Of a DNA stretch of 64,000 nt, positions 19,642-62,960 are shown one piece after another (within the stretch, counting starts at the first letter, position 1; each line of letters opens with the position of its first letter). This stretch comes from Flavihumibacter cheonanensis (GTDB lineage: Bacteria; Bacteroidota; Bacteroidia; Chitinophagales; Chitinophagaceae). The position numbers and the translations under genes are program-made. The stretch spans positions 291,854-355,853 of the forward strand of contig NZ_JAKRWF010000003.1 of the NCBI RefSeq assembly GCF_022352215.1. Direction: 5' to 3'. The notes under the pieces were generated by a model. The model had not been told where the DNA came from and did not search any database. It worked only from the letters and a program-made list of their open reading frames with translations.

Positions 19642-19947
19642 AACTAGTTTACAATATAAACCAAACAAAAAAAATAGAGGCCCGACTAAGACTAGCCAGG
19701 CCTTGTTGATCGTACCCTTTAAAACTATACACTCTTATTGCTGGAGCAGACTGATAACCAGTCCAAGCCAAATCACAGCCAATACTCCAATTGTGATCCA
19801 TTTATTTACAACAGTCTGTGGGGAAGAAGGAAGGCGGTATTCTCCCGGCACAGAACCGTTTTTTGATCTTCGGTTCAAGTCCATACGGTTCGGTTTAGTG
19901 GTTCCATCAAATTATTTTCTCACGTCTCACTTCTCACGTCTCACTTC
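19637..19947. other. Gene-poor interval holding a micro-ORF and a heptad tract
   Basis: The interval holds the operon promoter at its left end, a 49-codon ORF (19735-19884, minus strand) and a five-unit 7-bp repeat tract at its right end. Nothing else was recognised between 19642 and 19734. Confidence 0.6.
19735..19884 (-). CDS. Small single-pass membrane protein, 49 residues
   Basis: An ATG at 19884 opens a 49-codon frame ending in TAA at 19735-19737. The protein has a basic head (MDLNRRSKNGSVPGEYRL), then NKW and one hydrophobic helix (ITIGVLAVIWLGLVISLL) followed by QQ. Positive charge on one side of a clean helix is what a real single-pass protein shows. It lies between a T9SS-exported protein gene and the TonB-receptor operon, on the same strand. 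There is no homology evidence, so it remains a candidate. Confidence 0.45.
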   Translation of the reverse strand: MDLNRRSKNGSVPGEYRLPSSPQTVVNKWITIGVLAVIWLGLVISLLQQ

Positions 19948-19953
19948 TCACTT
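19919..19953 (-). repeat. Heptad repeat tract A (5 units)
   Basis: Five exact 7-bp steps. On the minus strand the units are AAGTGAG, AAGTGAG, ACGTGAG, AAGTGAG and ACGTGAG. The last Lys codon and the TGA stop of the overlapping gene come from the first unit. Confidence 0.85.
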
Positions 19954-20586
19954 CGTCTTCACCAACCGGGCATGTATTGATTCAGAAGCGGTCCGGGCTT
20001 TTAGAATATACCAGCCGGGCGCCACATCATCAAGATCCATACTCAGTGCTACTGAAGCTCTTTTCTCAACCCTGGTTTTCAGCAACTGTCCATTTCCGTT
20101 ATACAATTCCAATATAACTTCCTGTTGGTTCCATTGCTGCGGAAGTGCAGCGACCACAGTACGTTGTACCGGATTGGGATAAAGACTTAGCCGCATAGTT
20201 TCAGCTGCGTCCCGGTTTACCTGTTGCGGAGAAGAATATTGGATGGTTCCATCTTTATTGATCAACCTTAACCTGTAATACAAAACCTTATTTTTAGTAG
20301 GAAGGAATTTATCGGTATAAGCATAACTGCTCTTTAACCGGGTATCACCTTCCGTAAAATAGATTGCCACTTCCTTAAACTGCTCACCATTTATACTTCT
20401 TTCGATGGCGAAATGACTAAAGTTTTTTTCTACTGCTGCTGTCCATTTCAGAACAACCTGGTTCTTTTCCCATTTAGCGGAAAAATTTTCCAGTCCGATA
20501 CGATCAGCAGCGCTTACAACCAGCACTTTAAGTAACAGCATGCCTAAAAGCATGAACTGTTTGTTCAGGGGGTACGACGTTTTCAT
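19948..20586 (-). CDS. Secreted protein with T9SS sorting domain
   Basis: A 212-residue protein with a signal-peptide-like start (QFMLLGMLLLKVLVVSAADR). Residues 30-125 form a beta-sandwich of the kind that precedes sorting domains (LENFSAKWEKNQVVLKWTAA, FAIERSINGEQFKEVA). LSLYPNPVQRTVVAALP to LKARTASESIHARLVKTK is a type A sorting domain (the N-P motif then a final K/R-rich strand). It is therefore probably exported by type IX secretion. The final Lys and the stop codon are supplied by an intergenic heptad repeat, so the original C-terminus may have been altered. Confidence 0.8.
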   Translation of the reverse strand: MKTSYPLNKQFMLLGMLLLKVLVVSAADRIGLENFSAKWEKNQVVLKWTAAVEKNFSHFAIERSINGEQFKEVAIYFTEGDTRLKSSYAYTDKFLPTKNKVLYYRLRLINKDGTIQYSSPQQVNRDAAETMRLSLYPNPVQRTVVAALPQQWNQQEVILELYNGNGQLLKTRVEKRASVALSMDLDDVAPGWYILKARTASESIHARLVKTK

Positions 20587-21771: not shown

Positions 21772-21929
21772 GATCAACTATGGGTGGATTATCAAAATGC
21801 CCATAGGTACTGGATAACAGCCATTCAGCAGGATTGGATCATGTCAGACGCAGAACAAAGATTGCATCCCTTTTTGACATATGCAAGGAATAGGGAAAAT
21901 TATTTCGACGAATGGAACAATAAGAGGAA

Positions 21930-21957
21930 GTGAGACGTCAGATGTGAGACGTGAGAA
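21930..21957 (+). repeat. Heptad repeat tract B (4 units)
   Basis: Units on the + strand are GTGAGAC, GTCAGAT, GTGAGAC and GTGAGAA. It is the inverted partner of tract C: both carry the variant GTCAGAn as the second unit. Confidence 0.85.
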
Positions 21958-21969
21958 AGGCATCCTACT

Positions 21970-22003
21970 AAAAAAGGGCCGTATTTTTAGATACGACCCT
22001 TTT
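21970..22003 (-). terminator. Terminator of the atp operon
   Basis: On the minus strand AAAAGGGTCGTAT pairs with ATACGGCCCTTTT (one G-U), followed by a T-run. It is about 77 bp after the atpA stop and lies between inverted heptad tracts B and C. Confidence 0.85.
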
Positions 22004-22050
22004 GGAAATATAAATTAAGAAGTGTGAAGCATGAATTAATCGGAATTTCA

Positions 22051-22078
22051 GTCTCACATTTCACGTCTGACGTCTCAC
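22051..22078 (-). repeat. Heptad repeat tract C (4 units) at the atpA stop
   Basis: On the minus strand the units are GTGAGAC, GTCAGAC, GTGAAAT and GTGAGAC, starting one base after the atpA TAA. The unit order matches tracts B and I. Confidence 0.85.
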
Positions 22079-22079
22079 T

Positions 22080-23657
22080 TTATTTCATCTGCGCTGCAAT
22101 TCCCTTCGCCAACTCAACCATCTTGTTCAGGCCATCTTCAGGCAGTCCGCCCTTCTTGAACTCAGCCAGTACATTCGGAAGTTTTGCTTCCATCTCATGC
22201 AGGAACTGCTCTTCAAACTCTTTTACTTTGTTTACAGGAACATCCCGCAGCAAACCTTGTGTACCGAGGTAAATAATCGCCACCTGCTTTTCTACTGAAA
22301 ACGGCGCGAACTGAGGCTGCTTCAGAATTTCCAAATTACGTGCACCTTTATCAAGCACCAATTTGGTAGCAGGATCCAGATCACCTCCGAATTTGGAGAA
22401 CGCTTCCATCTCACGATACAGCGCCTGGTCCAGCTTCAAGGTTCCAGCAACTTTTTTCATTGATTTAATCTGCGCATTACCACCCACACGACTAACCGAA
22501 ATACCTACGTTGATCGCCGGACGAATACCAGCATTGAACAGGTTACCTTCCAGGAAGATCTGACCGTCGGTGATAGAAATTACGTTTGTTGGGATATAGG
22601 CAGATACGTCCCCCGCCTGTGTTTCAATGATTGGCAGAGCTGTTAGGGAACCACCACCTTTAACCAGGTGTTTGATGCTTTCCGGCAGATCATTCATATT
22701 CCGGGCAACCTCATCTTTTCCGATGATTTTTGCTGCACGCTCCAGCAAACGGCTATGCAGGTAGAATACGTCACCAGGATATGCTTCACGACCAGGGGGA
22801 CGACGAAGCAGCAGGGAAACTTCCCGGTAAGCTACTGCCTGCTTAGACAGATCATCATAAATGATCAGGGCAGGACGACCGGTATCACGGAAGAATTCTC
22901 CGATAGCAGCACCAGCAAATGGAGCATAGAACTGCTGAGGAGCCGGGTCAGATGCAGAAGCTGCTACGATGGTAGTGTACTGCATCGCACCATTTTCTTC
23001 GAGGGTCTTCATCACACCTGCAATGGTAGAAGCTTTCTGACCAATCGCTACGTATATACAATAAACGGGTTTGCCCGCATCAAAAAACTCTTTCTGGTTG
23101 ATGATGGTGTCAATCGCGATGGCAGTTTTACCTGTCTGACGGTCACCAATGATCAATTCCCGCTGGCCACGACCAATCGGAATCATCGCGTCAATTGCTT
23201 TGATACCGGTCTGAAGTGGTTCTTTTACCGGCTCACGGAAAATTACACCCGGCGCTTTACGCTCCAGTGGCATTTCATAGAGGTCTCCGGAAACAGGACC
23301 TTTACCGTCAATTGGCTGGCCCAGGGTATTAATAACACGCCCTACCAAACCATCACCTACTTTAATAGAAGCGATTTGGCCGGTTCTTTTTACTTTATCA
23401 CCTTCTTTAATTTCGGATGACTCACCCATCAATACCACACCCACATTGTCTTCTTCCAGGTTCAGGGCGATTGCTTTTACTCCGTTGGCAAATTCAACCA
23501 GCTCACCTGCGCGCACATTGCTCAGTCCGTATACACGGGCGATACCATCACCCACCTGCAAAACGGTACCAACTTCTTCCAGGTCGGCAGAAGCGTTGAA
23601 GTTGCTCAGCTGCTGGCGCAGTATCGCTGATATTTCATCTGGTTTAATGTCTACCAT
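22080..23657 (-). CDS. atpA: F1 ATP synthase subunit alpha
   Basis: A 525-residue alpha subunit with the P-loop [14 protein letters not shown], the [13 protein letters not shown] segment, the ARG-finger region [20 protein letters not shown] and [25 protein letters not shown]. It binds nucleotide at the non-catalytic sites of the F1 hexamer. It is the last gene of the run atpB-E-F-H-A. The gamma subunit gene, which usually follows, is absent; a terminator and heptad repeats come next instead. Length is normal (about 505-527). Confidence 0.97.
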
Positions 23658-24805: not shown

Positions 24806-24837
24806 TTTATTAATTTAAAAGGTCAATTTATTTTCTT

Positions 24838-24872
24838 TTTTCACATCTCACATCTCACGTCTCACCTCTCTC
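24838..24872 (-). repeat. Heptad repeat tract D between atpE and atpF
   Basis: Five 7-bp steps. On the + strand they are TTTTCAC, ATCTCAC, ATCTCAC, GTCTCAC and CTCTCTC. It sits in the atpF leader, downstream of the atpE hairpin. Confidence 0.8.
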
Positions 24873-24877
24873 TTCAA

Positions 24878-26351: not shown

Positions 26352-26456
26352 GGAAGGAGGAATTATGGAGGAGGAATTATGAAGTTAGAAGTAGGAATTA
26401 TGAATTATGAAGTTGGGAGAGGGAAAACAAAGGAGACAGAGGAGGCAAAGGAGACG
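26352..26456 (+). repeat. Heptad repeat tract J (15 units)
   Basis: Exactly 105 bp in 7-bp phase. Units on the + strand include GGAATTA (three times), TGAAGTT (twice), TGAATTA, AAAGGAG, AGGCAAA and GGAGACG. Words of 11 and 13 bp recur inverted in tract K. Confidence 0.8.
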
Positions 26457-31600: not shown

Positions 31601-32652
31601 TCCAATTCAAAAATTTATCTCCGAGGCAGGTAAGTGCTGTGCTGGCATTTGCCATATCGGCATTGGTGGGACTAGCTAATTTTATACTGGTAGACGACTG
31701 GCTCATCGCCCTCGCCTCCTTTGCGGTTTTATTTCTGGTTGCCTACCTCCTCATATTTTATTTTTTGCAGCAATTCATCTATCGCCGGATCAAGCTGATT
31801 TATAAGTTCATTTACCAGACCAAGGCAACCAAAAGAGAGGAGTTTTACAACAAATACATTATACCCCAGAAAAGTATTGATGAGGTAAAGGAAGACGTTG
31901 AGAAATGGGCAGTACAGCGGCAGGGAGAGATCGAGGTGTTACGAAAGAATGAAGCATTTCGAAAAGAGTTTCTGCAGAACCTGGCGCATGAATTCAAGAC
32001 GCCGATTTTCGCTATACAGGGATATATTGATACGCTACTTGGGGGCGCAATGGAAAACCCGGATGTTCGGAAACGTTTCCTGGAAAATACCAGCCGAAAT
32101 GTTGATCGCCTGGTAAACCTCATGAATGACCTGGATGAAATTTCAAGACTTGAAAGTGGTGAACAGGTATTATACAAACAGTACTTTGTGGTGCAGGACC
32201 TGATCCGTGAAGTGATTGAATCCCTTTCCATCAAACTGAGTCAAAAGGAGATTTCAGCTTCCATTAAAAAAGGATGTGAGGCGCCGGTTTACGTTTTTGC
32301 AGACAAGGAGAGAATCCGTCAGGTTATGATTAACCTGATATCCAATGCCACCAAATACGGTAAGGCAGGCGGTAGTATTGTGATCAGTGTGTACAATACG
32401 GATGAGTTCAAGGTATTGGTGGAAGTTAGTGATGACGGAATAGGCATTGAAGAAGCGCATTTACCCCGCATATTTGAACGTTTTTATCGTACGGACAAAG
32501 CCCGCAGCCGCGACAAAGGCGGCACCGGACTGGGCCTTGCCATTTGCAAACATATCATCGAAGCACACGGTGAATCTATGCACGTACGCAGTAAACCGGA
32601 TGTAGGAACAACGATTGGATTCACACTATCTTCTACGAGGGGCGAGGGATAA
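31597..32652 (+). CDS. Sensor histidine kinase, PhoR-like
   Basis: A 351-residue kinase. Two adjacent membrane helices (residues 13-32 and 36-58) are joined by a very short loop, so there is no periplasmic sensor domain. The H-box FLQNLAHEFKTPIFAI carries the phosphorylated His131. The N-box is MINLISNATKYG, G1 is VSDDGIGIEEAHL, the F-box is IFERFYR and G2 is GGTGLGLAICK. This short form without a PAS domain is the common PhoR type of this phylum. It is translationally coupled to the regulator gene. Confidence 0.93.
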   Translation: MIQFKNLSPRQVSAVLAFAISALVGLANFILVDDWLIALASFAVLFLVAYLLIFYFLQQFIYRRIKLIYKFIYQTKATKREEFYNKYIIPQKSIDEVKEDVEKWAVQRQGEIEVLRKNEAFRKEFLQNLAHEFKTPIFAIQGYIDTLLGGAMENPDVRKRFLENTSRNVDRLVNLMNDLDEISRLESGEQVLYKQYFVVQDLIREVIESLSIKLSQKEISASIKKGCEAPVYVFADKERIRQVMINLISNATKYGKAGGSIVISVYNTDEFKVLVEVSDDGIGIEEAHLPRIFERFYRTDKARSRDKGGTGLGLAICKHIIEAHGESMHVRSKPDVGTTIGFTLSSTRGEG

Positions 32653-32660
32653 AATAAAAA

Positions 32661-41902: not shown

Positions 41903-41911
41903 AACAATTAA

Positions 41912-42002
41912 GTGAGATGTGAGACGTGAGACGTGAGATGTGAGACTTCCCACTTCTTACTTCCTAATTCATACTTCCTAATTCATACTTCATACTTTCC
42001 CC
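41912..42002 (+). repeat. Heptad repeat tract E (13 units), running to the Pit start codon
   Basis: Exactly 91 bp, 13 steps of seven. Five units GTGAGAT, GTGAGAC, GTGAGAC, GTGAGAT, GTGAGAC are followed by eight of another type: TTCCCAC, TTCTTAC, TTCCTAA, TTCATAC, TTCCTAA, TTCATAC, TTCATAC and TTTCCCC. The ATG of the Pit gene follows immediately. Confidence 0.92.
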
Positions 42003-52078: not shown

Positions 52079-52123
52079 ATGGGAATGGGAGATGGAGAAT
52101 TATAAGGGCAAAGGTAGGGAAAA

Positions 52124-52214
52124 GGTGAAAAGTGAAAGGTGAAAGGTGAAAGGTGAAAGCGAGAGAAGTGAGAGGTGAAAGAAGAGTATCTCCTTTCACC
52201 TTTCACTTCTTCTC
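52124..52214. repeat. Heptad repeat tract F (13 units), partly palindromic
   Basis: Exactly 91 bp in 7-bp phase between mreD and mrdA. GGTGAAA, AGTGAAA and three more GGTGAAA units come first, then mixed units, then TTTCACC and TTTCACT in the opposite orientation. It reads from both ends as GTGAAAGGTGAAAG. The region 52082-52123 continues a weaker version. The mreD stop TGA lies at the right edge. Confidence 0.9.
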
Positions 52215-56154: not shown

Positions 56155-56240
56155 GTTGATTCAATTCAACGGCTAATGTACTGGATGCATACCGATGAGG
56201 GTGTTTCGATTTTCCTTATTCAGGCCATTATTTTACCCGA

Positions 56241-56268
56241 CTCACATCACACTTCTCACGTCTCACTT
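56241..56268 (-). repeat. Heptad repeat tract G (4 units) at the tryptophan dioxygenase stop
   Basis: On the minus strand the units are AAGTGAG, ACGTGAG, AAGTGTG and ATGTGAG. The final Lys codon and TGA stop of the gene are the first five to six bases. Confidence 0.85.
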
Positions 56269-57279
56269 TTCATACCCCCCAAAACCGAGACGTTTCTCCA
56301 TTATTGTATCCAGCTTTGGCAGGTGCCGGCGCTCTACCAGGAAACTCGTTAATTGAGCGATTTCGCGAAAGATATAATGTTTGTCCACAGCTCCCTTGAG
56401 ATAATCTTTACCTGTACTGCCTCCTGTGCCAATCCTGGTACCGATCATTCGATGAACCATGTTCATGTGACGATAGCGCCAGGTACTCAGCTGCTCATCT
56501 ATCTCAAGTAATACATTCAGTAATTGGAACGGCAGTTGCAAAATAGGATACCCCCGGTACAACATAATAAACAATGCTGCTCTTGAAGCCCTTGGAGATA
56601 ATTGACGATTCTGCTGATCCGCCGAATCCTGCTTTTGCGCCATCCCAAACATTTGTGCAAATGCATCAAGGTTACCCTGCTCTTTTTCGGATAAACTTGA
56701 ACGGTAGACATCCGTATACTCCTCAAACCAGCCAGGGGCCTGCTCCAGGAATGGCATCCGCTCCAACCATTCATTCAGCAAACTGATCAGGGATTGTTCA
56801 GATTCAATTCGTTTGATCAGGGCTACCTGCTCGGGACGTAATTGCAATAAATAATATTCCTGGCCATGCCGTTGTTCGAATCGAAGTCCCATCCTGGCTT
56901 CCAACCCCTTAAATTGCCAACTTTGAAATCCTGATGCCGGCCGCAGCATGTCCCTGAAATCAAGGAAATCCATAGGGGTCATCGTTTCCATCACATCAAT
57001 CTGCTGAACCAGCAACTTCAGGATGGTAACTGTGCGCTGCAACCGATGAACTACTGTTTGCAGTTCAGGAGAATTATCGTTTAGAGATGGCTGTTGCAGA
57101 ATTGCATGCACACTATCAACTTCATACATGATCTGTTTGAACCACAATTCATAGGCCTGGTGAATGATGATGAATAACATTTCATCATGCGCAGGCTGCT
57201 GGTGCAAATCACTCTCGGGTTGTTGAGCACCAAGTATCTTATCAAGCTGCAGATAGTCAGAATAATGCACAGATTTCAT
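56263..57279 (-). CDS. kynA: Tryptophan 2,3-dioxygenase family protein
   Basis: A 338-residue haem protein. Landmarks are HYSDYLQLDKIL, DEMLFIIIHQAYELWFKQI (substrate-binding helices), MDFLDFRDMLRPASGFQS (family signature), RYRHMNMVHRMIG (haem-ligand His region) and GTGGSTGKDYL (substrate loop). It opens the indole ring of tryptophan to N-formylkynurenine. The open frame goes to 57426, but the extra part overlaps purD; the ATG at 57279 gives the natural start, 11 bp after the purD stop. The final Lys and stop codon lie in a heptad repeat. Confidence 0.92.
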   Translation of the reverse strand: MKSVHYSDYLQLDKILGAQQPESDLHQQPAHDEMLFIIIHQAYELWFKQIMYEVDSVHAILQQPSLNDNSPELQTVVHRLQRTVTILKLLVQQIDVMETMTPMDFLDFRDMLRPASGFQSWQFKGLEARMGLRFEQRHGQEYYLLQLRPEQVALIKRIESEQSLISLLNEWLERMPFLEQAPGWFEEYTDVYRSSLSEKEQGNLDAFAQMFGMAQKQDSADQQNRQLSPRASRAALFIMLYRGYPILQLPFQLLNVLLEIDEQLSTWRYRHMNMVHRMIGTRIGTGGSTGKDYLKGAVDKHYIFREIAQLTSFLVERRHLPKLDTIMEKRLGFGGYEK

Positions 57280-58717: not shown

Positions 58718-60445
58718 ATGAGTCAAACGCAGATTGCTGCCCAAAAAAGTCATCCAAAAGGGCTTTATATTCTTTTTGCAACAGAAATGTGGGAGCGCTT
58801 CAATTATTATGGAATGCGCGCCGTACTGGTTCTATTCATGACAAAGGCACTGGTCTTTGATAAAGCTTTCGCCTCCAATCTTTATGGCTCCTATACCGGA
58901 CTCGTTTACCTTACCCCCCTAATCGGTGGATTTATCGCAGATCGCTACTGGGGTAACAAACGCTCAATTATTGCGGGGGGATTACTGATGGCGATGGGCG
59001 AATTCATCCTATTTTTCTGTGGAAGTTTGTATGCCTCCAATCCCGGATTATCCAGTGTTCTGTTTTTCTCCGGACTGGGTTTCATGATTGCGGGAAATGG
59101 ATTTTTCAAACCGAATATTTCTTCGCTGGTCGGCCAGTTATACCCCGATGGCGACCGTCGTAAAGATGCCGCCTATACCATTTTTTATATGGGAATCAAT
59201 GTAGGTGGTGCATTAGGACCGATCGTTTGTGCCTTTTTGGGAGATACCGGAGATCCGGCAGATTTTAAATGGGCATTCCTGGCAGGAGGTATTGCTATGT
59301 TGTTAAGTGTTATCGTACAATGGATATTCCAGGAGAAATATGTGGTTGACCCCCAGGGAAAATCATTGGGACTGGTACCTGCCGATTCTCCAAAATCTTT
59401 TTCCAATCCATTGCTTGTAGGTACCGGTTTAGCCATTTTATCGGCACTGATGATAGGCTTGCTATACATCGATGCTACCAAGTTCTCCTTCCTAACCTAT
59501 CTGTTGCTGGCCTCCGCCATTTTTATCATCGTTTTTATCCTGTCTGACAAAACACTGACCAAGATTGAAAAAGAAAGGGTTATTGTTATTCTCATCGTTT
59601 CCTTCTTTGTAATCTTTTTCTGGAGTGCATTTGAACAGGCTGGCGCTTCACTTACCTTTTTTGCGGATGAACAAACCAATCGCGATTTGAACTGGGATAT
59701 CCCAAAATGGATAATTTATCTCCTTGGAATAGCTATTGTTTTTTACCTTGGTCTTCTCTTGAAAAAAGCCACATCGGCATTAGCAGGATCATTTGACAAA
59801 CAACTTCGTATAACCGTTCAGGTTTTACTGGCTGCAGCAATTGGCACGCTCGTTTACTTAATGTTCCAGGTTGCCACCAATGGAACCTCATCCATCTTTA
59901 TTGGCACCATACCGGCCAGTGCGTTCGCTTCATTGAACTCCATCTATGTTGTGAGTTTCGCACCGGTGTTTGCGTGGTTATGGATTAAAATGGGCAAACG
60001 CGAACCCTCCTCCCCAACCAAAATGGCTATTGGTCTGATGTTGCTTGCCCTGGGGTATCTCTGGATTGCACAGGGTGTTGATGGGGTTCAACCCGGCATT
60101 AAAGTAAGCATGATCTGGCTGCTTGGTATGTATGCAATGCATACCTGGGGTGAACTTTGTCTCTCACCAATCGGACTGAGCCTTGTAAACAAATTAGCTC
60201 CGTTGAAATATGCCAGTTTGTTAATGGCCGTTTGGTTTCTCGCGAACGCCGTGGCCAACAAATTTGCCGGCGTACTGAGTGCCCTCTATCCTGATGGCAA
60301 AAGCACCTACTTCCTCGGGTATGAGATCGCCAACAACTACGATTTCTTCCTGCTCTTTGTAGGAATGGCCGGTGTTGCATCACTCATTCTGTTTGGATTA
60401 ACCAAGAAATTGCAGAAGATGATGCACGAGAAAACGGAAGTATGA
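58718..60445 (+). CDS. Proton-dependent oligopeptide (POT) family transporter
   Basis: A 575-residue protein with about 14 membrane helices. ATEMWERFNYYGMRAVLVLF contains the E-x-x-E-R-F-x-Y-Y-G motif that couples proton to peptide, and FYMGINVGGALGPIVCAFLG and SPIGLSLVNKLAP are other PTR2 signatures. It imports di- and tripeptides with protons. The stop TGA (60443-60445) lies within the first unit of the repeat-bounded element that follows, so its C-terminal Val and stop are probably derived from it. Confidence 0.94.
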   Translation: MSQTQIAAQKSHPKGLYILFATEMWERFNYYGMRAVLVLFMTKALVFDKAFASNLYGSYTGLVYLTPLIGGFIADRYWGNKRSIIAGGLLMAMGEFILFFCGSLYASNPGLSSVLFFSGLGFMIAGNGFFKPNISSLVGQLYPDGDRRKDAAYTIFYMGINVGGALGPIVCAFLGDTGDPADFKWAFLAGGIAMLLSVIVQWIFQEKYVVDPQGKSLGLVPADSPKSFSNPLLVGTGLAILSALMIGLLYIDATKFSFLTYLLLASAIFIIVFILSDKTLTKIEKERVIVILIVSFFVIFFWSAFEQAGASLTFFADEQTNRDLNWDIPKWIIYLLGIAIVFYLGLLLKKATSALAGSFDKQLRITVQVLLAAAIGTLVYLMFQVATNGTSSIFIGTIPASAFASLNSIYVVSFAPVFAWLWIKMGKREPSSPTKMAIGLMLLALGYLWIAQGVDGVQPGIKVSMIWLLGMYAMHTWGELCLSPIGLSLVNKLAPLKYASLLMAVWFLANAVANKFAGVLSALYPDGKSTYFLGYEIANNYDFFLLFVGMAGVASLILFGLTKKLQKMMHEKTEV

Positions 60446-60475
60446 GTTATGAATTTTGAATTGAGAATTATGGAA
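60441..60475 (+). repeat. Heptad repeat tract L, left arm of the four-helix element
   Basis: Units TATGAGT, TATGAAT, TTTGAAT, TGAGAAT and TATGGAA on the + strand. TGAATTTTGAATT (60450-60462) occurs inverted in the right arm. The POT transporter stop codon is inside the first unit. Confidence 0.85.
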
Positions 60476-60540
60476 CCTCATTTTAAATTCTGGGTTTTTT
60501 CAACCTTTTTTGTTGCCTCTTTCCTTATTATTTTAAATAA

Positions 60541-60915
60541 ATGGGAGCAAAGGAATTATTATTCAGAACGAGAGAGTTTGCTTTGAATGTTATTCAAATT
60601 CTAGATAAACTACCTGATTCTATCGGAAATAAAACAATTAAAAATCAACTGGTAAGATCTGCAACCGGAATGGCTGCCAATTACCGTGCGTCAACCAAAT
60701 CACGATCTCTGAAAGAGTTTACAGCAAGACTGGGGGTAGTTATTGAGGAAGCGGACGAATCTTGGTTCTGGCTCGATCTGTTGGAAGTTTTGAATCCTAA
60801 ACTTTCAGATATATCACTTCTTAAATCTGAAGCATTTCAACTTACAGCAATATTTACCAGCTCGGTCAAAACAATTAAAAGAAATGCAAGTGAAAAGACC
60901 CCCAATAACTCATAA
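60541..60915 (+). CDS. Four-helix-bundle protein (23S rRNA intervening-sequence/Avd-like)
   Basis: A 124-residue protein. FRTREFALNVIQILDKLPDS, NKTIKNQLVRSATGMAANYR (the most conserved part of this family), SLKEFTARLGVVIEEADESW and FWLDLLEVLNP form four amphipathic helices. The family (PF05635-like, TIGR02436-like) was first found inside 23S rRNA intervening sequences and is related to the Avd protein of diversity-generating retroelements. No rRNA or reverse transcriptase is near. The gene is enclosed by inverted heptad tracts, and its own TAA stop lies in the right tract. Confidence 0.88.
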   Translation: MGAKELLFRTREFALNVIQILDKLPDSIGNKTIKNQLVRSATGMAANYRASTKSRSLKEFTARLGVVIEEADESWFWLDLLEVLNPKLSDISLLKSEAFQLTAIFTSSVKTIKRNASEKTPNNS

Positions 60916-60935
60916 TTCAAAATTCACAATTCCTA
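60908..60935 (-). repeat. Heptad repeat tract M, right arm of the four-helix element
   Basis: Units ACTCATA, ATTCAAA, ATTCACA and ATTCCTA on the + strand, the inverse of tract L. The TAA stop of the four-helix gene is at 60913-60915 and the TAG of apaG is at 60933-60935, at the outer edge. Confidence 0.85.
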
Positions 60936-61319
60936 GTTATTTTTAAAGGGCACTATCATCTCAAATGCCGGAATATCTACTGAAAAGTTTTTACGGGAAT
61001 CGAGGTTTTCCATTTGGTAGGTGCCAGACATGCGGCCCATTTCAGAGCGAAGATTACAACCACTTACGTACTGGTAGCGGTCACCTGGATAAAGGACGGG
61101 TTGAACACCAACCACCCCTTCCCCTTCCACTTCGCGGTGCTCGCCATTGGAATCAAAAATGAACCAATGCCGGCGGTGGAGCTTAACGGGAAAGCTATTA
61201 TGATTTTCAATGGTAATGCGGTAAGCGAACATGTATTCACCCGACATCGGATTAGAATAGTCGGGCTGATAAAACGTTTCCACACTCACCTCTATACCTT
61301 GTGTGGTTATACTGTTCAT
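60933..61319 (-). CDS. apaG: ApaG family protein (DUF525)
   Basis: A 128-residue beta-sandwich protein, normal size. GIEVSVETFYQPDYSNPMSG, YMFAYRITIENHNSFPVKLHRRHW (landmarks YRITIENHN and VKLHRRHW), GEGVVGVQPVLYPGDRYQYVSG and MSGTYQMEN are the ApaG signatures. The role is unclear; it is often linked to ApaH, and eukaryotic homologues bind proteins in F-box or polymerase contexts. Its stop codon touches the outer edge of the repeat-bounded element. Confidence 0.93.
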   Translation of the reverse strand: MNSITTQGIEVSVETFYQPDYSNPMSGEYMFAYRITIENHNSFPVKLHRRHWFIFDSNGEHREVEGEGVVGVQPVLYPGDRYQYVSGCNLRSEMGRMSGTYQMENLDSRKNFSVDIPAFEMIVPFKNN

Positions 61320-61448: not shown

Positions 61449-62900
61449 ATGAAAATAGCTGTAGCCAAAGGTGATGGAATAGGCCCGGAAATCATGGATG
61501 CCGTTTTGCGCATTTTTGATGCAAACCAGGTTCCCCTCGAATATGAATTTGTAGAAATGGGTAAATGGGTGTTTGACAAAGGTTATTCCAATGGAATGAC
61601 ACCGGAAGCCCAGCAAACAATCGAAAACCTTTCCATTCTTTTCAAAGGACCAATGGAAACTCCGAAGGGCAAAGGTGTTAAAAGCGTGAATGTTACCGCA
61701 CGTAAAACCTGGAATACATATGCTAATAAAAGAGCATTCCAAACCCTTCATGGAGTAGATACCGTATTCAGCAAAGCTGGAATACCCATTGACCTCACCA
61801 TCGTTCGTGAGAACATTGAAGATACCTATGGCGGCATCGAACATATGCTTACCCATGATGTGGCACTCAGTCGCCGTTTCATCACCCGACCCGGAAGTCT
61901 GCAGGTTATTAAATACGCTTTTGAAATGGCCAGTAAAAACGGTGCCCGCCGGATTACCTGTGGCCACAAGGCAAACATTATGAAAATTACCGATGGATTA
62001 TTCCTGGAGGTATTTTATGAAGTTGCCAAACAGTATCCGCATCTGAAAGCCGATGATGTAATTGTGGACGATCTCTGTATGAAACTGGTTAGTCGCCCAA
62101 ATGAATTTGACGTGGTGGTATTGACCAACCTTCAGGGAGATATTGTAAGTGATTTGTGTGCCGGACTGGTAGGCGGACTTGGATTTGCCCCCTCTGCCAA
62201 TATCGGTGATCACATCTGTATTTTCGAAGCAGTTCACGGAACCGCTCCTGATATCGCTGGTAAAAATATCGCCAACCCAACCGCCCTGTTATTGAGTGGC
62301 ATTGCTATGCTTCGACACCTGGGACTTATGGAAAATGCAGCTGTAATCGAAAACGCATTGCTATACACGCTGGAATCAGGTGTGCATACGGGTGATTTCG
62401 GCGACAAATCCAAACCTTCCGTTAATACCACAGAATTTGCAGACGCGATTATCGGCAATATCGGCAAAACCCCAGCACATGGTGCCCGCCCAATTCTGCC
62501 GAATAAACCGATAACTCAAACCGTTTACAAGTTGGAAAAGAACCCGCTTATCATGTCTGAAGAGCTGGAAAATGAAATGATTGTTGGGGTCGATATGTTT
62601 ATTGAAAGCTTTGAACAACCCCAGGAAGTTGCAGATAAATGCCTGAAGCATACCGGCGACCTTTTTAAACTGGTTACCATTAGTAACAGGGGCACCCAGG
62701 TTTGGCCTAAAGGCTCTGTCTTCACCAATCTTATCAACCAATATCGATGCCGTTTCGAAAGTATTGGAGAGGCACCACTTACACAAACAGATGTGCTGGA
62801 ATTATACAAGCGTCTCATGGTTGATTTTAAAATCTGTTCAACTGAATTACTGAACATGTGGGATGGCAAAAAGGCTTATAGTCTTGCGCAGGGACAATAG
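61449..62900 (+). CDS. icd: NADP-dependent isocitrate dehydrogenase, long type
   Basis: A 483-residue enzyme of the isocitrate/isopropylmalate dehydrogenase family. KIAVAKGDGIGPEIMDAVLR is the N-terminal motif, IVRENIEDTYGGIEHML contains the substrate loop, DDLCMKLVSRPNEFDVVVLTNLQGDIVSDLCAGLVGGLGFAPSANIG (landmarks NLQGDIVSDL and APSANIG) is the metal site, and EAVHGTAPDIAGKNIANP is the cofactor region. A C-terminal domain of about 150 residues makes it longer than E. coli Icd (416), as in Thermus and many bacteroidetes. It makes 2-oxoglutarate in the TCA cycle. Confidence 0.93.
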   Translation: MKIAVAKGDGIGPEIMDAVLRIFDANQVPLEYEFVEMGKWVFDKGYSNGMTPEAQQTIENLSILFKGPMETPKGKGVKSVNVTARKTWNTYANKRAFQTLHGVDTVFSKAGIPIDLTIVRENIEDTYGGIEHMLTHDVALSRRFITRPGSLQVIKYAFEMASKNGARRITCGHKANIMKITDGLFLEVFYEVAKQYPHLKADDVIVDDLCMKLVSRPNEFDVVVLTNLQGDIVSDLCAGLVGGLGFAPSANIGDHICIFEAVHGTAPDIAGKNIANPTALLLSGIAMLRHLGLMENAAVIENALLYTLESGVHTGDFGDKSKPSVNTTEFADAIIGNIGKTPAHGARPILPNKPITQTVYKLEKNPLIMSEELENEMIVGVDMFIESFEQPQEVADKCLKHTGDLFKLVTISNRGTQVWPKGSVFTNLINQYRCRFESIGEAPLTQTDVLELYKRLMVDFKICSTELLNMWDGKKAYSLAQGQ

Positions 62901-62902
62901 GA

Positions 62903-62930
62903 AGTGAAAGGTGAAAGGTGAAAAGTGAAA
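62903..62930 (+). repeat. Heptad repeat tract H (4 units) after icd
   Basis: Units AGTGAAA, GGTGAAA, GGTGAAA and AGTGAAA begin three bases after the icd stop and end exactly where the icd terminator stem begins. Confidence 0.85.
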
Positions 62931-62960
62931 ATGCCGGTTCTGATGGAGCCGGCATTTTTT
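62931..62960 (+). terminator. Terminator of icd
   Basis: ATGCCGG pairs with CCGGCAT around an 11-nt loop and is followed by a T-run. It directly follows heptad tract H. Confidence 0.88.

What the first reader, a model, noticed from the sequence alone, without database searches (positions are those of the whole stretch)
60441..60935. Four-helix-bundle gene enclosed by inverted heptad repeats: a candidate undescribed mobile element
Seen: a 495-bp segment that starts inside the stop codon of the peptide transporter gene and ends at the stop codon of convergent apaG. Its ends are inverted tracts of 7-bp units (TATGAAT/TTTGAAT left, ATTCAAA/ATTCACA right) sharing the inverted 13-mer TGAATTTTGAATT. 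The only cargo is a 124-residue four-helix-bundle protein. Known: this family (23S-IVP, PF05635-like; Avd-related) was found inside rRNA intervening sequences and diversity-generating retroelements, and no free-standing element with heptad ends is known to me. Inferred: this may be the autonomous or helper copy of the heptad family, comparable to a RAYT gene between REP sequences.
Basis: partly seen in the sequence, partly recalled or inferred. Interest (0 to 1): 0.82.

Follow-up and report, generated by a model that had tools for sequence, protein, structure and literature searches.

The report
Four-helix gene inside inverted heptad repeats
A small bacterial gene wrapped in inverted runs of 7-letter DNA repeats is one copy of a widespread travelling unit that sits between genes, inside genes and inside ribosomal RNA, which suggests that several puzzles studied separately (heptad repeats, rRNA intervening sequences and this protein family) belong together.

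Summary
The window (Flavihumibacter-like, Chitinophagaceae) carries a 124-residue S23/TIGR02436 four-helix gene between inverted tracts of 7-bp units, filling a POT/apaG junction. The architecture is general: of 131 such genes sampled from Bacteroidota and cyanobacterial plasmids, 69 have heptad tracts on both sides (1 of 258 displaced controls) and 100 on at least one (control 30 of 258). Heptads differ between elements, but the two arms of one element usually match as inverted copies. The unit behaves as mobile: arm+gene+arm homology blocks recur in unrelated flanks (two copies in one genome; three cyanobacterial plasmids), the POT/apaG site is empty in relatives, and three such genes (two with detectable heptad arms) lie inside DNA-methylase genes whose frame stays open. 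A copy inside an Azospirillum 23S rRNA gene has heptad arms too, and heptads are published for the Coxiella rRNA intervening sequence (IVS). I read it as a generalised, transcript-borne IVS rather than a RAYT-like transposon: no Y1 transposase was detected in the genus, no reverse transcriptase in this genome. Arms can change in concert at orthologous sites. How it moves is unproven; I propose that the ring-shaped pentamer binds tandem heptads, about one per subunit.

The parts
60438..60471 (+). left heptad arm (G-rich strand on +); contains the POT stop codon
   Evidence: 34 nt, 79% complementary to right arm; lag-7 tract 60441-60469
60541..60915 (+). four-helix-bundle gene, 124 aa, S23/TIGR02436
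   Evidence: AlphaFold pLDDT 92; Foldseek best hits 2RLD, 2GSC, then DGR/Avd chains; dN/dS 0.03 against G004
60905..60938 (-). right heptad arm, inverted; contains the four-helix stop and the apaG stop
   Evidence: lag-7 tract 60904-60933
58718..60445 (+). upstream neighbour: POT-family transporter
   Evidence: PF00854
60933..61319 (-). downstream convergent neighbour: apaG
   Evidence: PF04379
52116..52210 (.). orphan inverted heptad hairpin, GTGAAAG type; the orthologous site in G004 has GTGAGAC-type arms
21927..22080 (.). orphan inverted heptads (GTGAGAC type) around a terminator-like hairpin; G008 has GTGAAAR-type arms at the same place
62896..62931 (+). single heptad tract at the stop of the gene ending at 62900 (GTGAAAG type; G004 mostly GTGAGAC)
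41908..41997 (.). two neighbouring inverted tracts of different heptads (GTGAGAC; AAGTATG/AATTAGG)
19913..19959 (-). single orphan heptad tract
24827..24875 (-). single orphan heptad tract
26369..26423 (+). single orphan heptad tract, AATTATG type
56236..56272 (-). single orphan heptad tract

Best explanation
The segment is one copy of a mobile unit of about 0.4-0.5 kb: an S23/TIGR02436 gene in the loop of an inverted repeat whose arms are about 5-6 tandem heptads. SHOWN: the unit (arm-gene-arm) recurs in unrelated surroundings, is absent from the same site in relatives, lies mostly in sense orientation between host genes, also lies inside methylase genes with the host frame left open, and has the same build in a 23S rRNA gene. 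INFERRED: it lives as a generalised intervening sequence (IVS) of transcripts. It is transcribed with the host gene; the heptad arms fold into a stem that RNase III can cut, as published for rRNA IVSs, which frees the ORF and makes insertion tolerable. Insertions persist best at stop codons, where the G-rich arm itself can supply a stop, or in loops of rRNA and proteins. INFERRED, weaker: the four-helix protein, a toroidal pentamer in a solved relative, wraps tandem heptads of RNA or single-stranded DNA, roughly one heptad per subunit (a ring mode as in TRAP, recalled), holds both arms and directs copying or pasting by host enzymes; solo tracts are arms left behind or target sites. The moving enzyme is not identified.
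For: Association: heptad tracts on both sides in 69 of 131 genes, 1 of 258 displaced controls; at least one side 100 of 131, control 30 of 258. Inverted score above 17 in 68 of 131 four-helix genes, 5 of 192 neighbouring genes, 1 of 171 genes in three homologous regions, that one being G008's four-helix gene. Lag-7 identity 0.60/0.62 against 0.43; lag 14 also raised, lag 8 slightly. Matching arms: median similarity 0.68 inverted, 0.44 direct, 0.45 between loci; own partner in the top 5% for 49 of 69. Unit: L154/L155 in one genome, 80% over 455 bp; L228/L231/L232, 78-82% over about 417 bp; L230/L233; L236/L237; homology stops at the arms. Methylase insertions absent from homologues; the +2 frame is stop-free in 3 of 131 genes, exactly the nested three. 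POT/apaG filled and empty states. rRNA case: L246 in RF02541 with 36-nt inverted heptad arms. Same direction as both neighbours in 82 of 131, opposite to both in 15. Arm length median about 6 heptads (67 upstream and 74 downstream arms). Related proteins at different sites share heptads: of 8 pairs with identity 0.7 or more (not all independent) 7 exceed 0.65 similarity; about 4-5% of pairs below 0.45 identity do.
Against: 62 of 131 lack a tract on one or both sides and 31 lack any. In this genome L003's arms have mixed 7/8-bp spacing; the nested gene L193 has no detectable arms. L245 has direct, not inverted, arrays; L039 has period 19 and L247 period 8. Over all non-syntenic pairs heptad and protein similarity are nearly uncorrelated (rho 0.04, 99 of 500 permutations as high). 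Direction of change at POT/apaG is undetermined (tree poorly resolved). No target-site duplication was found. RNA folding of the window unit is only weakly special (z -1.7, 9 of 100 shuffles as good; G004's z -2.8). Only 7 of 29 orphan tracts have an inverted partner. Neighbouring genes also have tracts on both sides in 25 of 192. The Coxiella S23p is probably not expressed (PMC4990558). Protein binding and RNase III cutting were not tested.
Confidence: 0.6

Rival explanations
1. The heptads are the host's 3'-end signals: tails after stop codons bound by a domesticated four-helix RNA-binding protein that controls mRNA ends. The gene travels near its own binding sites, but the network serves the host.
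For: 14 of 29 orphan tracts start within 25 nt of a sense stop against 41 of 1450 (2.8%) random positions; dN/dS 0.03, like POT at 0.032; orphan tracts far outnumber genes; some tracts stand just before terminator-like hairpins.
Against: Between co-directional genes the right arm is antisense, which tails do not explain; the gene has a frameshift in G008 and an internal stop in G001; insertion inside methylases and 23S rRNA.
Confidence: 0.2
2. Coincidence: the two arms are just independent 3' tails of the convergent POT and apaG genes, and the small gene happens to lie between them.
For: Both neighbours converge here, each with a tract at its stop; 22 of 29 orphan tracts are single.
Against: Only 14 of 131 loci are in that convergent setting, yet inverted arms are found in 68-69 of 131; homology blocks include both arms.
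Confidence: 0.06
3. RT-dependent retroelement: the Avd-like pentamer partners a reverse transcriptase, as in diversity-generating retroelements.
For: Same fold as Avd, alone and in the DGR ribonucleoprotein (4DWL, 8UB7); sense orientation between genes; G014 and G018, rich in heptads, do have RVT_1 matches.
Against: No RVT_1 match at E 1e-6 in G000, G004, G008 or G034, which have 615, 842, 562 and 819 matches to one heptad type (reversed-pattern control 99, 41, 161 and 4).
Confidence: 0.07
4. REP/RAYT-like: heptad hairpins mobilised by a Y1 (HUH) transposase, the four-helix gene being a passenger.
For: Many dispersed tracts at gene ends, as for REPs (recalled); Y1 matches exist in 28 of the 44 genomes searched outside the genus.
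Against: Y1_Tnp passed E 1e-6 in 0 of 15 genomes of the genus; the gene itself is under purifying selection.
Confidence: 0.04

Closest known systems
23S rRNA intervening sequences (IVS) with S23p ORF, e.g. Coxiella burnetii (PMC4990558: part 1 of 6 of the whole text, passages, and sections 16 and 19 read)
   Same: S23-family ORF in the loop of a terminal inverted repeat; about 430 nt; sense orientation in the host transcript; tandem heptamers upstream of the ORF, varying in number between strains
   Different: Ours lies between protein genes, and relatives lie between operon genes and inside methylase genes; heptads differ per element and also occur as many orphan tracts. The parts read tie neither heptads nor S23p to elements outside rRNA
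Short tandemly repeated heptanucleotides (STRR) of cyanobacteria (recalled) and TAACTGA repeats of Beggiatoaceae (PMC4679880: abstract, section 10 and passages read)
   Same: Tandem 7-bp units, intergenic, dispersed, patchily shared by Cyanobacteria and Bacteroidetes; that author names a repeat-binding protein as a possible mobile element
   Different: No link to a four-helix gene: 'four helix', '23S', 'intervening' and 'STRR' do not occur in its main text
REP sequences with RAYT genes (recalled)
   Same: Many dispersed short elements and few helper-like genes
   Different: No Y1 transposase found in the genus; the protein is a small four-helix bundle; arms are tandem heptads
Avd of diversity-generating retroelements
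   Same: Fold (4DWL, 8UB7)
   Different: No reverse transcriptase in this genome at E 1e-6

Membership tests
23S rRNA IVS elements | S23/TIGR02436 four-helix ORF | tested here: met
   PF05635 itself below its cut-off
23S rRNA IVS elements | terminal inverted repeats able to form a stem | tested here: met
   stability weak for this copy (z -1.7)
23S rRNA IVS elements | located in an rRNA gene | tested here: not met
   between POT and apaG; no Rfam match in the window. The relative L246 meets it
23S rRNA IVS elements | excised by RNase III | not testable with these tools
   needs RNA experiments
STRR-type heptanucleotide repeats | tandem 7-bp units dispersed through the genome | tested here: met
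   130 against 7 and 592 against 3 matches, pattern against reversed pattern
REP/RAYT | Y1 (HUH) transposase gene | tested here: not met
   0 of 15 genomes of the genus at E 1e-6
Diversity-generating retroelement | reverse transcriptase | tested here: not met
   none in G000 at E 1e-6
Diversity-generating retroelement | template/variable repeat pair | not tested
   no RT, so not pursued
DNA transposon / insertion sequence | transposase and target-site duplication | tested here: inconclusive
   the unit's one ORF is TIGR02436; no flanking duplication seen at L154/L155, but the arms are repetitive

The most novel reading that the evidence does not exclude
One cross-phylum class of mobile unit underlies rRNA intervening sequences, the heptanucleotide tracts of Bacteroidota and cyanobacteria, and the S23/TIGR02436 family. 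A pentameric four-helix ring reads tandem heptads of RNA or single-stranded DNA, about one heptad per subunit, and with host enzymes rewrites both arms and the genome's solo tracts in concert. That would be a mobile element whose recognition code drifts quickly while arms, solo tracts and protein stay matched.
Probability: 0.3. Interest if true: 0.93.

Novelty: new variant of a known kind. Interest (0 to 1): 0.82.

Why it matters
It would give the heptad repeats, whose origin and function have been open (PMC4679880 asks for the binding protein), a candidate partner gene. It would free rRNA intervening sequences from rRNA, and give the S23/TIGR02436 family, whose solved members carry titles of unknown or hypothetical function, a testable ligand. 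The concerted change of both arms at orthologous sites in genomes about 85-91% identical in DNA would be a new kind of fast, coordinated repeat turnover. The stop-free dual coding inside methylases shows how such a unit can survive within a gene.

Tried and rejected
RT partner (Avd-like) and Y1/RAYT mobilisation were tested and not supported. A coupling of protein and heptad over the whole family was not found (rho 0.04, 99 of 500 permutations as high); pairs of at least 50% identity (n 169) share heptads beyond chance (0 of 500). Genome-wide dependence of heptads on the gene is only suggestive: one heptad type was counted; 11 genomes without a TIGR02436 hit have 0-13 matches, and 8 of 48 with a hit exceed 100. 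The POT/apaG history (gain or loss) could not be settled: 7 of 12 inner branches open, and several relatives have a different POT paralogue next to apaG. A scan of viral contigs with one Bacteroidota protein found no relative (finds close relatives only). A target duplication was not found. A first, narrow motif scan found tracts on both sides of the window element only, among the three own genes; the wider tests replaced it. On rechecking L003's arms proved to have mixed 7/8-bp spacing and L193 no detectable arms; earlier notes had called both heptad-armed. Sampling: the gene listings are capped; I used the listed places of the genus and a choice from its family and order, not a random draw. 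Rows dropped: L066 and L216 (too short) before the counts. L211 was turned to the wrong strand by my script because its gene has an internal stop; its arms are symmetric, but its protein row is wrong. L005-L034 and L070-L099, best-matching places, were reduced by hand to 29 tracts before (overlaps and the arms of the window and L002 elements left out); two of the 29 are arms of one hairpin, several had no sense ORF end recorded, and 5 of 29 end within 25 nt of an antisense stop. In one search the window's own gene is not a hit (score 13 when flanks are counted from its stop, which lies in the arm). Plasmid hits used: 12 of 46 for the statistics (mostly the best), 5 more examined apart.
Full report
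OBSERVATION. In the window, a 124-residue ORF (60541-60915, +) stands between a POT transporter gene and convergent apaG. It is an S23/TIGR02436 four-helix protein. Its flanks are inverted tracts of 7-bp units, 34 nt, 79% complementary. The tract sequence is enriched in the window (13 matches, 2.5 expected) and in the genome (130 matches against 7 for the reversed pattern). The inverted score of this copy beats 100 of 100 shuffles, though not the 99th percentile of cross-locus pairs.

GENERALITY. The genome has three TIGR02436 genes. The second (L002) lies between GTGAGAC heptads (inverted score 31.5); the third (L003) between inverted GGAAGA-type tracts whose spacing is mixed 7/8 bp, so period 15 rather than 7 (score 19.5). 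I gathered 91 genes from the window's own order: 28 of 29 new loci, 60 stretches, and the 3 own genes. In 73 of 91 the upstream and downstream flanks match as inverted copies better than all 100 shuffles; 54 of 91 exceed the 99th percentile of cross-locus pairs, against 0 of 178 displaced windows; the lag-7 signal stands out. Adding 28 loci from 80 genomes across Bacteroidota and 12 of 46 plasmid hits, these 12 all cyanobacterial, gives 131 genes: heptad tracts on both sides in 69, on at least one in 100, against 1 and 30 of 258 displaced windows. For the added sets alone, the inverted score exceeds the 99th percentile of cross-locus pairs in 12 of 28 and 5 of 12, displaced 0 of 56 and 0 of 24. 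Against real genes as controls: inverted score above 17 in 68 of 131 four-helix genes, 5 of 192 neighbouring genes, and 1 of 171 genes of three homologous regions (that one a four-helix gene); tracts on both sides in 69, 25 and 2, the 25 perhaps because neighbours share an arm. Beyond these, L246 (Azospirillum), L248 (Bernardetia) and L040 (Acidobacteria) show period-7 inverted tracts; L247 has period 8 and L039 period 19, both with strong inverted scores; L244 is weak; L245 has direct arrays.

ARMS. Heptads differ between elements, but the two arms of one element match in inverted orientation (median 0.68) and not in direct orientation (0.44); the partner arm ranks in the top 5% for 49 of 69. 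The 5' arm is the G-rich strand in 60 of 69. Arms have a median of about 6 units. At orthologous orphan sites the unit sequence has been exchanged in concert: GTGAAAG-type arms at window 52116-52210 against GTGAGAC-type in G004; GTGAGAC-type at 21927-22080 against GTGAAAR-type in G008, around similar terminator-like hairpins. Other orphan sites kept their heptad type in all three genomes. The four-helix element itself carries ATGAATT-type arms in G000, G004, G005 and G008, GTGAGAA/GTTAGAA-type in G014 and GTAAGAG-type in G001, although the proteins of G000, G005, G014 and G001 are each other's best matches among the 25 compared in the genus.

MOBILITY. (1) At POT/apaG the unit is present in G000, G004, G008, G014 and G001 and, at a contig end, G005; it is absent in G002 (POT 86% identical, 24 bp between the stops), G006, G007, G009, G011, G012 and G013, which have short intergenic stretches; G003 has a longer stretch without a four-helix match, and G010 gave no apaG match. 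The order of gain and loss is open. (2) The unit recurs in unrelated flanks with homology ending at the arms: L154/L155 in one genome (80% over 455 bp), L228/L231/L232 on three cyanobacterial plasmids, L230/L233, L236/L237. (3) Related proteins at different sites carry related heptads: 7 of 8 pairs of at least 70% identity (three of them within one trio), 29% of 49 pairs at 55-70%, 10% of 378 at 45-55%, 4-5% below that; the Bacteroidota element L217 resembles cyanobacterial L228/L231/L232 in both. (4) In L193, L194 and L206 the four-helix gene lies inside DNA-methylase genes; five homologues compared lack it. L194 and L206 have heptad arms at the ends of the insert; L193 has none detectable. 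The host frame stays open through the insert in frame +2; over the four-helix match this frame is stop-free in exactly these 3 of 131 genes, median 8 stops.

TRANSCRIPT LIFE. Four-helix genes lie in the same direction as both neighbouring ORFs in 82 of 131 and opposite to both in 15. Cyanobacterial copies stand within CRISPR-Cas gene runs (cas6-cas4 in L227 and L234; cas10-cmr3 in L235). L246 lies in a 23S rRNA gene (RF02541) with 36-nt inverted heptad arms. For the Coxiella 23S IVS, heptameric repeats (GACAGAT) before the S23p ORF, a 28-bp stem and RNase III processing are published (PMC4990558, sections 16 and 19 and passages). Hence the reading as a generalised IVS.

PROTEIN. AlphaFold gives four helices (pLDDT 92); Foldseek finds 2RLD and 2GSC of the S23 family, then Avd and the DGR ribonucleoprotein. 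Both S23 entries hold five chains; the Xanthomonas protein is described as a homopentameric toroid in PMC4990558. Invariant or nearly invariant residues over 44 sequences are Q36, R39, N47, E73. dN/dS against G004 is 0.03, as for POT, while G008's copy has a frameshift and G001's an internal stop. I therefore propose, as inference, a ring that binds tandem heptads.

ORPHANS. Tracts without the gene are many: 592 matches to GTGAGANGTGAGANGTGAGA against 3 for the control. Of 29 examined, 14 begin within 25 nt of a sense stop against 2.8% of random positions, and 7 have an inverted partner. The G-rich strand of many heptads carries a stop codon, so the tract can supply the stop of the gene before it (sequence reading). 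No Y1 transposase in 15 of 15 genomes of the genus and no reverse transcriptase in this genome passed E 1e-6.

LITERATURE. Ten searches showed no title or abstract start that links heptad tracts with S23/TIGR02436 genes outside rRNA; several listings were capped, and the library holds open-licence PubMed Central papers only. STRR and REP/RAYT are recalled.

VERDICT. The mechanism stays a proposal.

Noticed in passing
L193, L194, L206 (whole loci, - strand): Four-helix genes nested in another frame inside DNA-methylase genes, with the host frame open through the insert; L193 and L194 sit at the same place of related methylases in different families.
   Followed up: yes
L206, host protein residues outside the nested gene: Further peptides that look heptad-derived (such as QRAASGE and ARQSPLA) are inserted in frame elsewhere in the same methylase; L242's methylase shows a similar peptide (by eye).
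   Followed up: partly
L227, L234, L235: Four-helix genes of cyanobacterial plasmids lie within CRISPR-Cas gene runs (cas6-cas4, cas10-cmr3); L218 lies before a brxL-like gene (named from recall).
   Followed up: no
L211 (G089) flanks: Very long heptad arrays (ACGCGGG / ACGCGAG types) on both sides of a four-helix gene that has an internal stop.
   Followed up: no
window 41908-41997: Two neighbouring inverted tracts made of different heptads (GTGAGAC and AATTATG/AAGTATG types), kept in G004 and G008.
   Followed up: partly
L242:1-131 and following gene: In Candidatus Chlorohelix a four-helix gene stands directly before an N-6 DNA methylase; the same pairing may hold in Dolichospermum (H34, H73).
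   Followed up: no
window 32652-32656 against G008: G008 has about 2.56 kb extra DNA here relative to the window.
   Followed up: no
L039:2860-3432: Acidobacterial relative (50% identity) with strong inverted arms built of 19-bp units rather than heptads, in an unrelated gene setting.
   Followed up: partly
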